Assembly: GCF_000015825.1 (NCBI RefSeq)
Contig: NC_009051.1
Span: 1,916,695 to 1,980,694 of the forward strand
Length of the DNA: 64,000 bases
Reading direction: 5' to 3'
Source: Methanoculleus marisnigri JR1
GTDB lineage: Archaea; Halobacteriota; Methanomicrobia; Methanomicrobiales; Methanoculleaceae
Part shown: positions 6,094-9,440 of the stretch, piece after piece
Numbering within the stretch: the first letter of the stretch is position 1
Layout: each line of letters opens with the position of its first letter
Program-made: the position numbers and the translations under genes
The notes under the pieces: model-generated
Databases searched by the model: none
Seen by the model: only the letters and a program-made list of their open reading frames with translations
Told to the model about the DNA's origin: nothing

Positions 6094-6837
6094 ATGACCA
6101 TATCTCTTGGAAAACGATGCGTCGCCGAAGCCGTCGGGACGTTTATCCTGGTCTTCTTCGGTGCCGGCGCCGCGGTCGTCACGCTGATGCTCGCCGCGGG
6201 GACGACCCCGGCGACCCCCTTCAACATAGGGATCGGGGCGCTCGGGGGACTCGGCGACTGGCTCGCGATAGGGCTCGCCTTCGGCATCGCCATCGCCGGC
6301 TCGATCTACGCCTTCGGGCGAATATCGGGCTGCCACATCAACCCGGCGGTGACGATAGCCCTCTTTGCAACCCGCCGGCTCCCCGGCCGCGACGTCGTCC
6401 CGTACATCGCCGCGCAACTGATCGGCGCCGCGGCGGCAAGCCTGCTCTTCGCCTGGGCCGTCGGCCCGGACGCCGTAACCATCGGGGGCCTCGGGGCGAC
6501 GGCACCTTTTGTCGGCATCGGCTACCTGCAGGCAATCGTCATCGAGGCGATCGGGACGTTCCTTCTGATGCTCGTCATCATGGGCGCCGCCGTTGACGAA
6601 CGGGCCACGCCGGGCTTTGCCGGGCTTGTTGTGGGTCTCGCGGTCGCGGGGATCATCACGACGATCGGGAACCTGACCGGCGCGTCGCTGAACCCCGCCC
6701 GTACGTTCGGCCCCTACCTCGGGGACTGGCTTTTAGCAGGCCAGAACCTCTGGGAGTTCTTCCCCATCTACATCATCGGCCCCATCGTCGGTGCGGTGCT
6801 CGCCGCATTCCTCTACGACTACGTCTGCTGCGAATGA
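6094..6837 (+). CDS. aqpM: Aquaporin AqpM (MIP channel)
   Basis: A 247-residue MIP-family channel with six hydrophobic helices and two NPA boxes: GCHINPAVTIAL near 94-105 and ASLNPARTFGPYL near 198-210. Length and motifs agree with archaeal AqpM, which conducts water and, in studied examples, some glycerol and possibly dissolved gases. The ATG at 6094 follows GGTGA. It ends the DUF2193-DUF2180-aqpM run, with a 71-base gap before it that could hold its own promoter. Directly downstream lies the 45-bp repeat array. Confidence 0.95.
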   Translation: MTISLGKRCVAEAVGTFILVFFGAGAAVVTLMLAAGTTPATPFNIGIGALGGLGDWLAIGLAFGIAIAGSIYAFGRISGCHINPAVTIALFATRRLPGRDVVPYIAAQLIGAAAASLLFAWAVGPDAVTIGGLGATAPFVGIGYLQAIVIEAIGTFLLMLVIMGAAVDERATPGFAGLVVGLAVAGIITTIGNLTGASLNPARTFGPYLGDWLLAGQNLWEFFPIYIIGPIVGAVLAAFLYDYVCCE

Positions 6838-6865
6838 TCCAACCCTACCGCTTTTTGTAAAAATG

Positions 6866-7280
6866 CGACGGGCCGAAGGGCCGGAGCTGGAGCACCGCAG
6901 GTGCGACTGGCGACGGGCCGAAGGGCCGGAGCTGGAGCACCGCAGGTGCGACTGGCGACGGGCCGAAGGGCCGGAGCTGGAGCACCGCAGGTGCGACTGG
7001 CGACGGGCCGAAGGGCCGGAGCTGGAGCACCGCAGGTGCGACTGGCGACGGGCCGAAGGGCCGGAGCTGGAGCACCGCAGGTGCGACTGGCGACGGGCCG
7101 AAGGGCCGGAGCTGGAGCACCGCAGGTGCGACTGGCGACGGGCCGAAGGGCCGGAGCTGGAGCACCGCAGGTGCGACTGGCGACGGGCCGAAGGGCCGGA
7201 GCTGGAGCACCGCAGGTGCGACTGGCGACGGGCCGAAGGGCCGGAGCTGGAGCACCGCAGGTGCGACTGGCGACGGGCCG
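6866..7280. repeat. 45-bp tandem repeat, nine exact copies plus a 10-bp partial
   Basis: Units start at 6866, 6911, 6956, 7001, 7046, 7091, 7136, 7181 and 7226 with no base difference that I can find; a tenth begins at 7271 and stops after CGACGGGCCG. Each unit holds two inverted repeats: GGCC-GAAG-GGCC and GCACC-GCA-GGTGC. The period is a multiple of three, so several frames stay open across the array, but the translations are low-complexity 15-residue repeats with no start signal. I regard it as noncoding. The array directly follows aqpM. Confidence 0.97.
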
Positions 7281-7642
7281 TCAGGAACGGAGCTTGAGAA
7301 GGGCAAGCATTACCGGCCGCCGTCCATCCTTCGCGTAAACTCTACAAGAATTCTCCTAAAAACTGCTTCACACAAGAGCAAATCGGCCCGACAGAAGAGC
7401 GGTGAACCGGAACAGATCCGGTTTGCCGCAAGTATGCCCGGGATGCCCGTTCGGGCCACCCGGGGTCCCTCAGCATGGAGCGAACAACGAATTCTCGTTG
7501 CTCCCACCCGAATCGATATCCGGAGAGCCGCGCTTACCCGGTATGGGCGCCGTCGACCGGACACCCGCGACCGGGCTGTTCACATTTACCCTCGCCCCTC
7601 ATTCCCGCGGGAAATATTTATAGATTTCGGATACGCGGTGCC
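7281..7642. other. Intergenic region with hairpins and an AT-rich promoter-like site
   Basis: No convincing gene is seen in these 362 bases. They contain an imperfect inverted repeat around 7473-7501 (GGAGCGAACAACGA facing TCGTTGCTCC), a short GCCCG-TT-CGGGC hairpin near 7446-7457, and a TATA-like GAAATATTTATAGA at 7611-7624, which lies just beyond the stop of the ThDP gene. If the last functions leftward it would transcribe this spacer and the repeat array; no product is apparent. Confidence 0.45.
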
Positions 7643-9232
7643 TTACTCGAACCGTTTCGGATCGGTCTCGATATCGACGACGACGGGCACATTCATCCGG
7701 ATAGCCTGGAGAACCGCATCCGCAAGGTCCTGTGGCCGGGCCACCCGTATCCCGGCACCGCCGCAGGCCTCCGCATACGCCACGAAGTCCGGATTCGTGA
7801 GTTCGGTGCCGTAGGGCGGATAGTTCGCCTCCCTCTGCTCCTCCCGGATCATGGCAAGTTCGTGGTTGTTCATGATCGCGACGACGATGGGGAGATCGTA
7901 CTTGACCGCCGTGACGAAGTCGGCCATGACCATCGAGAATCCCCCGTCCCCGGTGATGCAGACGACGGTCGCATCGGGGTAGGCGAGTTTCGCCGCAATC
8001 GCCCCGGGGAGCCCGAACCCCATCGTCCCGAGGTAGCCGGACATCGCGAACCGCTGCCGCTTCATCCGGAAGTTCCTCCCGAACCACCACTGGTTCTCCC
8101 CGACGTCGAGGGAGATGACCGCGTCCTCCGGAAGGGTCTCGGAGAGGACTTTCATGATGTAGGGCGGGCGGATGGGGACCGCCTCCGGGTCGGCCTCCCG
8201 GTCGAGCTGGTTGAGCCATTCCTGCTTCTGCCCGGCAAGCCACGCCCCGACCTCCGTGTCCTCCCGCGGCCTGACCCGTTCCCGAATCATCGGTATGGCA
8301 ACGGCGCAGTCGCCATAGACCCCTGCCGCGAGCGGGTGTTTGCCGAGCTGGAGTGGGTCGATATCGATATGGACGGCCCGCTTCTCACCGGGGATCCCGG
8401 TGAAGTCGGAGAAACTCGCCCCGCAGGCGATCACGACGTCCGACTCCGCGACGAGCCTCTCGGCGTGCGGCGTCCCGAGCGGCCCGTGCACCCCGGCGAT
8501 CCACTCGTTCTCGTCGGGGAGGATGCCCTTCGCCCGGAAGGTGGTGACGATAGGCGCCCGGATCGTCTCTGCAAGATCGAGGACCGCTCCCGCCGCACGC
8601 ATGGCGCCGAATCCCGCGAGGATGACCGGCCGTGCGGCGCCGTCGATCGCCTCCGCCGCCGCCCGGACAGCCTCGTCGGTCGGGGCCGCCGTGACCGAGG
8701 AGAGGCAGGTCTCGCGTTCGCAGTAGGCAGGCTCGAGCGCCTCCCTCTGGATATCGTTCGGGAGGGACAACTGGGCGACGCCGCGGCCGACGATCGCGTA
8801 CCGGAGCGCCCGGGTGAGGAGTTTGACCGCCGTCGACGGGTCGGCGACGGTGTTGTTGAAGACCGCTATCGGGCGGAAGAACGCGTCCTGGTCGATCTCC
8901 TGGACGCCGCCGGGGCCGGCGTACTGCGCCTGCACCTGCCCGTTCAGGGAGAGCACGCTCGCCCGATCTTCCTTCGCGTCATACAGGCCGGTGGCGAGGT
9001 TCGTCGCCCCCGGCCCGGCGATGGTCAGGCAGACGGCGACTTTCCCCGTGAACTTGTTGTAGGCCGAGGCCGCGAGCGCCGCGGTCTGCTCGTGCCGGAC
9101 GACGACATAGTGCGCATCCGGGTTCCTCCTGACCGCGTCCACGAGCGGGAGCGACGATGAGCCGGGGATGCCGAAGTACAGGGTGATCCCCCAGGCCGCG
9201 AGCTCCGAGACCAGCACGTCGGCCACGGTCAT
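7643..9232 (-). CDS. Thiamine-diphosphate enzyme of the pyruvate oxidase/acetolactate synthase family
   Basis: About 529 residues with three domains: an N-terminal PYR domain containing the catalytic Glu (VRHEQTAALAASAYN), a central Rossmann-type domain, and a C-terminal PP domain with the ThDP/Mg motif GDGGFSMVMAD ending in MNN. It lacks features separating acetolactate synthase from pyruvate oxidase, so the substrate is uncertain. The start at 9232 (MTVADVLV) has a GGGGGTG site and leaves 10 bases after the rubredoxin stop; an upstream in-frame ATG at 9262 would overlap rubredoxin by 20 bases. Coupling to rubredoxin suggests a flavin- or iron-linked oxidase whose electrons pass to or from it (inference). 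Confidence 0.85.
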   Translation of the reverse strand: MTVADVLVSELAAWGITLYFGIPGSSSLPLVDAVRRNPDAHYVVVRHEQTAALAASAYNKFTGKVAVCLTIAGPGATNLATGLYDAKEDRASVLSLNGQVQAQYAGPGGVQEIDQDAFFRPIAVFNNTVADPSTAVKLLTRALRYAIVGRGVAQLSLPNDIQREALEPAYCERETCLSSVTAAPTDEAVRAAAEAIDGAARPVILAGFGAMRAAGAVLDLAETIRAPIVTTFRAKGILPDENEWIAGVHGPLGTPHAERLVAESDVVIACGASFSDFTGIPGEKRAVHIDIDPLQLGKHPLAAGVYGDCAVAIPMIRERVRPREDTEVGAWLAGQKQEWLNQLDREADPEAVPIRPPYIMKVLSETLPEDAVISLDVGENQWWFGRNFRMKRQRFAMSGYLGTMGFGLPGAIAAKLAYPDATVVCITGDGGFSMVMADFVTAVKYDLPIVVAIMNNHELAMIREEQREANYPPYGTELTNPDFVAYAEACGGAGIRVARPQDLADAVLQAIRMNVPVVVDIETDPKRFE

Positions 9233-9242
9233 GGCACCCCCT

Positions 9243-9440
9243 TCAGAGGTAATCTTCGTCATTTATCTCCCTCTCTTCTTCGCCGGCTCGCACGAACGCT
9301 TCCTTTCCCACGCTGCAGCGGGGACACCGCCAGTCACCGGGGAGCTCCTCGAAGAGCGTTCCCGGCGGTATCGCGGTGGCCGGGTCTCCTGCCTCCTCAA
9401 CATACTCGTAATCGCAGACACTGCAGACCCATCGTGCCAT
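9243..9440 (-). CDS. Rubredoxin
   Basis: A 65-residue protein with the four iron ligands in two knuckles: Cys6/Cys9 (WVCSVCDYEY) and Cys39/Cys42 (DWRCPRCSVGKE). The aromatic core and the GDPATAIPPGT loop are classic. The ATG at 9440 follows AGGAGTG. It is a one-electron carrier. In methanogens rubredoxin often works in oxygen and peroxide detoxification, and the FprA gene lies 1.2 kb away. The downstream ThDP enzyme starts within or just after this gene, so the two are probably one transcript. The tail past residue 48 is longer than in minimal rubredoxins and very acidic. Confidence 0.96.
   Translation of the reverse strand: MARWVCSVCDYEYVEEAGDPATAIPPGTLFEELPGDWRCPRCSVGKEAFVRAGEEEREINDEDYL

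What the first reader, a model, noticed from the sequence alone, without database searches (positions are those of the whole stretch)
6866..7280. Nine exact 45-bp tandem repeats with two hairpins per unit
All nine units are identical, which implies recent expansion or active homogenisation. Each unit forms two short stem-loops (GGCC-GAAG-GGCC and GCACC-GCA-GGTGC), so an RNA made from it would be a string of hairpins. The period is a multiple of three but there is no credible protein. It lies right after aqpM, where it could shape the transcript 3' end or act as a recombination or chromosome-organising site.
Basis: seen in the sequence. Interest (0 to 1): 0.6.

Follow-up and report, generated by a model that had tools for sequence, protein, structure and literature searches.

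The report
Archaeal intergenic DNA-hairpin repeat family
The nine identical 45-base repeats are one local burst of a spacer-DNA repeat that occurs hundreds of times in this methane-making archaeon and its relatives; each copy can fold into two tiny hairpins whose sequence changes while their shape is kept, and it encodes no protein.

Summary
In detail: 6865-7280 holds 9.2 copies of a 45-bp unit, 100% identical. The genome fits Methanoculleus marisnigri. The unit is not local: a covariance model finds 276 units at 75 intergenic sites in this genome, about 40 or more in most Methanoculleus genomes, and almost none in the rest of the order. The site is empty in 11 of 12 other species with this gene order; M. 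sediminis has a few non-identical units there, so nine copies is a recent local expansion. The unit is two mini-hairpins with fixed linkers and stems that vary but stay complementary. Loops are mostly GNA or GNNA, known to make extraordinarily stable DNA mini-hairpins. Sites favour convergent gene ends (37 against 6 divergent), with no sense/antisense bias. It is not coding: 18 of 23 arrays have periods not divisible by three. No Y1/RAYT transposase was found in this genome. Best reading: a RAYT-less, REP-like, DNA-structural repeat family, here locally amplified. Any role at 3' ends, in supercoiling or in chromosome organisation is untested.

The parts
6865..7280 (+). tandem array, 9.2 exact copies of a 45-bp unit
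   Evidence: TRF 100% matches; model R1 hits every unit at 62.6 bits
6865..6887 (+). hairpin B of the first unit: GC-GA-CGGGCC-GAA-GGGCCG-GA-GC (one G.G mismatch in the stem)
   Evidence: sequence; DNA fold; family alignment A3
6890..6906 (+). hairpin A of the first unit: GA-GCACC-GCA-GGTGC-GA
   Evidence: sequence; DNA fold; linker-only test of hairpin A in the genome
7270..7299 (+). diverged terminal half-unit (GCGACGGGCCGTCAGGAACGGAGCTTGAGA)
   Evidence: R1 24.9 bits, E 1.4e-4
6094..6837 (+). aqpM, aquaporin gene upstream of the array (context)
   Evidence: PF00230, E 6e-48
6852..6856 (+). T run between the aqpM stop and the array; T-rich stretches stand at the same place in species without the array (context)
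   Evidence: sequence and orthologous spacers
7643..9262 (-). thiamine-pyrophosphate enzyme gene, convergent with aqpM (context)
   Evidence: PF02775, PF02776, PF00205

Best explanation
The array is a locally amplified member of a Methanoculleus-wide, dispersed, non-coding family of hairpin repeats. SHOWN: hundreds of units at 75 intergenic sites; each unit is a pair of mini-hairpins with constant linkers, variable but complementary stems and mostly GNA/GNNA loops; both orientations occur; convergent gene ends are preferred over divergent ones; the window's site is empty in most related species. INFERRED: the units act as DNA, folding into mini-hairpins when a strand is exposed in replication, repair or under supercoiling; slippage or unequal recombination at such hairpins turns one unit into exact tandem copies; the family spreads by an unidentified, RAYT-independent route or by recombination between copies. 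It persists at gene 3' ends mainly because insertions there spare promoters; a further benefit there (ending transcription, absorbing supercoils) is possible but unproven.
For: Dispersal: 77 DNA matches, 276 intergenic units at 75 sites, 33 of 35 congeners. Fold: linker-only test 52/112 fully paired at insert length 15-17 against 10/316 at other lengths and 4/189 in coding DNA; double-change cells 36 against 8.8 shuffled; 27 distinct stems in hairpin A. Loops: 111 of 147 distinct tri/tetraloop hairpins are GNA/GNNA against about 10% and 6% in other hairpins; such loops give extraordinarily stable DNA mini-hairpins (PMC4686876). No transcription-strand bias, 15:15 sites, 47:53 units. Expansion: 11 of 12 syntenic species have an empty 52-113 bp spacer, M. 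sediminis 272 bp with non-identical units, this genome 546 bp. Local amplification: long arrays are mostly 98-100% identical inside but differ from each other in unit and period.
Against: No direct evidence of DNA hairpins in cells, of copy-number change within the species, or of a mobilising enzyme. The GNYA over GNRA excess that would exclude an RNA role is 24:7 in this genome but only 7:6 in inserts seen only in relatives. The window's own hairpin B carries a mismatch and its single fold is not better than many shuffles (z -1.09).
Confidence: 0.62

Rival explanations
1. Classical bacterial-type REP/BIME or REPIN: palindromes copied and spread by a REP-associated tyrosine transposase (RAYT).
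For: Short palindromes, extragenic, more than 100 copies, both orientations, clustered into mosaics.
Against: No Y1_Tnp (PF01797) in this genome even at E<=1, while the control genomes ring. In the genus 5 of the 7 genomes with a Y1_Tnp match have only 0-4 units. Stem sequences vary widely, unlike copies of one master hairpin.
Confidence: 0.1
2. RNA element: the hairpins act in transcripts as terminators or 3'-end stabilisers of the upstream genes.
For: Preference for convergent over divergent sites, 37:6, p 1.6e-6; stems would also form in RNA.
Against: Units in codirectional sites are as often antisense as sense (15:15) and not significantly closer to the upstream stop (p 0.15). A T run precedes the array and T-rich stretches stand there in species without it. 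No Rfam family overlaps the units. Tetraloops are not GNRA-biased. A symmetric hairpin could act in both orientations, so this is not excluded.
Confidence: 0.17
3. DNA-topology or chromosome-organising site (gyrase, topoisomerase or chromatin-protein binding, supercoil sink between convergent genes).
For: Convergent preference, constant linkers with shape-conserved stems, genus-wide maintenance.
Against: The same preference follows if insertions are merely tolerated away from promoters. No orientation pattern along the chromosome was seen and site density varies only modestly, 3-16 per 250 kb. Nothing tested binding.
Confidence: 0.2
4. Coding satellite: the 45-bp period encodes a 15-residue protein repeat.
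For: Period divisible by three; three frames are open across the array. A 2019 survey names Methanocella conradii as the only non-coding exception among archaeal long-repeat families, so treats the M. marisnigri ones as coding-like by default (PMC6749651).
Against: 18 of 23 family arrays have periods not divisible by three; no Pfam match to any frame; the orthologous site holds no reading frame of this kind, only a short spacer, in most species; 276 of 279 units lie between called genes.
Confidence: 0.03
5. Hairpin stems stay perfect not through selection but because a hairpin-templated copying process (template switching at quasi-palindromes) rewrites one arm from the other.
For: Stems are diverse yet mostly perfect; exact tandem copies show active slippage or recombination in the same DNA.
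Against: Does not by itself explain the conserved linkers and loop class. Not separable from selection with the data at hand.
Confidence: 0.25

Closest known systems
REP / BIME elements of bacteria (GTAG- and CGTC-tagged super-families, PMC3733652)
   Same: Short palindromes, extragenic, more than 100 copies per genome, both orientations, mosaics and clusters
   Different: Stem sequence not conserved, only its pairing; linkers and loop class are conserved instead; many exact tandem arrays; archaeal; no RAYT in this genome
REPINs with RAYT (Y1_Tnp) transposases (PMC3116915, PMC2817692)
   Same: Paired hairpins forming one unit, intergenic
   Different: No Y1_Tnp in this genome, and in the genus its presence goes with few or no units
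Prokaryotic satellites, M. marisnigri Fam_48_45_4 and Fam_102_51_3 (PMC6749651)
   Same: 45-bp and 51-bp period tandem arrays in the same species; very probably include this array (sequences in the supplement could not be read here)
   Different: The survey saw only tandem arrays and did not single them out as non-coding; it did not report the dispersed single units or the hairpins in the passages read
Extraordinarily stable DNA mini-hairpins, GNA/GNNA loops such as d(GCGAAGC) (PMC4686876 and references there)
   Same: Same loop classes on G-C rich stems; GCGAAGC itself occurs in the GAAAACGCGAAGCGTTTTC hairpin of the family
   Different: Known as a physical-chemical motif and aptamer part; no link to a natural dispersed repeat was found in the searches made here

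Membership tests
REP/BIME (broad sense) | Short palindromic, extragenic, high copy number (over 100) | tested here: met
   276 intergenic units at 75 sites
REP/BIME (broad sense) | Conserved palindrome sequence | tested here: not met
   Stem columns vary with compensation; only linkers GCGA/GAG[C/T] are near invariant
REP super-families | GTAG or CGTC tag at one end | tested here: inconclusive
   No GTAG. Reverse strand reads CGTCGC only where the stem begins CG; 7 of 25 rows of A3 have T at that place
RAYT-mobilised REP/REPIN | Y1_Tnp/RAYT gene in the genome | tested here: not met
   PF01797 absent at E<=1 in this genome, controls positive
Coding satellite | Periods in multiples of three, conserved reading frame | tested here: not met
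   5 of 23 arrays have 3n periods; no Pfam match
CRISPR array | Identical repeats separated by unique spacers | tested here: not met
   Units abut without spacers; the genome paper reports no CRISPR (PMC3035220)
Known structured RNA (Rfam) | Match to a family model over the units | tested here: not met
   None overlaps the array or the units in 20 further loci
Ordinary U-run terminator | Sense-oriented hairpin followed by a T run | tested here: not met
   No sense bias; in the window the T run precedes the array
DNA mini-hairpin structural element | GNA/GNNA loops on G-C stems | tested here: met
   111 of 147 distinct family hairpins with tri- or tetraloops
DNA mini-hairpin structural element | Hairpins form on DNA in cells | not testable with these tools
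   Needs single-strand probing in cells

The most novel reading that the evidence does not exclude
A dispersed archaeal repeat family maintained for a single-stranded-DNA shape rather than a sequence: alternating mini-hairpins with DNA-type GNA/GNNA loops and GA/GA junctions are conserved while the stems drift in compensated fashion, implying a structure-reading factor or a hairpin-copying process that is neither RAYT nor RNA-based.
Probability: 0.35. Interest if true: 0.75.

Novelty: new variant of a known kind. Interest (0 to 1): 0.52.

Why it matters
REP-like repeats are usually explained by a transposase that recognises a fixed hairpin. Here the hairpins keep their form but not their sequence, in an archaeal genus most of whose members lack that enzyme, and exact tandem expansions are caught at single sites with empty orthologues. 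This gives hundreds of natural replicate hairpins for testing how DNA hairpins arise, expand and are used at gene ends. It also corrects the default idea that satellites with a period divisible by three are coding.

Tried and rejected
Coding satellite: rejected by array periods, orthologues and lack of any family match. RAYT/REPIN: rejected for this genome by absence of Y1_Tnp. RNA terminator or 3'-stability element: weakened by the lack of strand bias, not excluded. Strand bias along the chromosome: none evident (site majorities by 310 kb bin; orc1/cdc6 genes at 529 and 639649); the replication origin itself was not mapped. Orthologous sites 1346492 and 1434245 in M. sediminis: pieces match in reversed orientation or order but not as one clean inversion, so I claim only rearrangement. 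A GNYA over GNRA preference looked strong in this genome (24:7) but is 7:6 in inserts seen only in relatives, so it carries little weight. The T1 motif as a terminal inverted repeat of a larger element: usually one copy per site, so not shown. Literature searches gave no description of the dispersed family.

Full report
WHAT IS THERE. TRF finds 6865-7280, period 45, 9.2 copies, 100% identical. The unit is GCGACGGGCCGAAGGGCCGGAGCTGGAGCACCGCAGGTGCGACTG. It lies between aqpM (6094-6837 +, PF00230) and a thiamine-pyrophosphate enzyme gene (7643-9262 -), a convergent site. A T run (6852-6856) separates the aqpM stop from the array. The window lies in a single contig of 2,478,101 bases. A survey of prokaryotic satellites lists M. 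marisnigri NC_009051.1 at 2.48 Mb and 62.1% GC with 21 satellites, among them a 45-bp family (PMC6749651). I take the host to be M. marisnigri; the sequence was not checked against a named record.

IT IS A DISPERSED FAMILY. A two-unit DNA query gives 77 matches in the own genome and matches in 28 of 35 Methanoculleus genomes. A covariance model of the unit (R1, 43 positions, 13 pairs) gives 279 matches in 70 fetched stretches. Of these, 276 fall between called genes, at 75 sites, and 3 fall in one predicted reading frame. Across 149 genomes of the order, 33 of 35 congeners have matches, most about 40 (a capped number). One genome of another genus in the family has 38. The other seven with any match have one or two each. 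The near silence of over 100 other genomes also shows that the model rarely fires by chance.

ANATOMY. Hairpin B is GC-GA-[stem]-loop-[stem]-GA-GC, with G.A oppositions inside the stem. Hairpin A is GA-[stem]-loop-[stem]-GA. The two are joined by two variable bases. To avoid circularity I fixed only the linkers. Intergenic inserts of 15-17 bases between GCGA and GAG[C/T] are fully paired over six positions in 52 of 112 distinct cases, against 10 of 316 at other lengths and 4 of 189 in coding DNA. Most of the not fully paired ones of length 15 in the first set examined have five of six pairs, including the window's own CGGGCC-GAA-GGGCCG class. For hairpin A, 27 distinct stems pass the same kind of test. 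Alignment A3 shows 99% pairing and 36 double-change cells, against 8.8 in shuffles and 14 or fewer in slid versions. Its rows were mostly chosen for pairing, so the linker-only test is the fair one.

LOOPS. Of 147 distinct family hairpins with tri- or tetraloops, 67 of 92 triloops are GNA and 44 of 55 tetraloops are GNNA. Other hairpins in the same DNA give about 10% and 6%. GNA and GNNA loops on G-C pairs are the published extraordinarily stable DNA mini-hairpins (PMC4686876). RNA would favour GNRA among the tetraloops (general knowledge). Here GNYA is 31 and GNRA 13, but only 7 and 6 among inserts seen only in relatives. A DNA role is favoured, not proved.

CONTEXT. 37 sites are convergent, 32 codirectional and 6 divergent (convergent against divergent, p 1.6e-6). 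Codirectional sites are 15 sense and 15 antisense, and closeness to the upstream stop is not significant. Gene calls are from a codon-usage script, not a curated annotation. The window's own spacers of 200 bp or more are 3 convergent, 5 codirectional and 6 divergent, a small control.

HISTORY. In 11 of 12 other species with the same order of aqpM, conserved element and TPP gene, the spacer after aqpM is 52-113 bp and no unit is seen in it. M. sediminis has 272 bp with non-identical units. The window has 546 bp with the exact array. So the element arrived before the marisnigri-sediminis split, or twice, and one unit was then multiplied. The 23 arrays found in the genome have periods from 30 to 139, only 5 of them divisible by three. 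Most long arrays are 98-100% identical inside while differing from each other. That is the pattern of local amplification, not genome-wide homogenisation. Two informative orthologous complexes are rearranged between the sister species.

MECHANISM. Shown: dispersal, conserved fold with varying stems, loop class, preference for convergent gene ends, recent expansion, and absence of Y1_Tnp in this genome. Five of the seven congeners with a Y1_Tnp match have 0-4 units. Inferred: units fold as DNA hairpins when single-stranded, and slippage or unequal exchange there yields exact tandem copies. The route of spread is unknown. The gene-end location may be simple tolerance of insertion away from promoters. 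Whether stems stay perfect through selection or through hairpin-templated copying cannot be told from these data.

KNOWN OR NEW. It works like REP/BIME elements but fails two defining tests of the well-described kinds: a conserved palindrome sequence, and a RAYT. The tandem arrays had very probably been listed as M. marisnigri satellites in 2019. I found no description of the dispersed hairpin family in the papers searched, and a survey of REPs in archaea does not mention Methanoculleus. I file it as a new variant of a known kind.

Noticed in passing
window 7380-7625, minus strand: About 215-bp conserved, structured element between the array and the TPP-enzyme gene, present in 12 species aligned (83% mean column identity, 65 predicted pairs, 10 with double changes, covariation term weak), with a TATA-like TCTATAAA/G box at its 5' side. 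It looks like an undescribed Methanoculleus small RNA read towards the array; no Rfam match.
   Followed up: partly
own genome, for example L062, L063, L125, L136; T1 motif at 38 places: About half of the 75 sites also carry a larger composite of conserved modules in a fixed order (CAGTGGACCGTGG, GGCTGACGGGGAG, GACAGGGGAGGGG on the other strand, GGGCGGGGGCAGTGCGTGGCGA), about 0.5-0.9 kb, in both orientations: possibly a second, non-autonomous dispersed element.
   Followed up: partly
L032, L036, L037, L033, L038 and other loci, intergenic: A third dispersed motif, CGCGAAGCCGCGAAG, often as an inverted pair around the hairpin units (8 sites).
   Followed up: no
L125 3192-3842 (genome about 1429795): The largest array of the family: about 14 units of 46-47 bp with a higher-order period of 139 bp, convergent site.
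   Followed up: no
L133 2924-3049: Three units lie inside the 3' part of a predicted 343-residue reading frame; a gene-call extension or units that became coding.
   Followed up: no
G033 (congener): 22 Y1 transposase matches and no repeat units, the extreme of a negative association between the two in the genus; shared ancestry may explain it.
   Followed up: no
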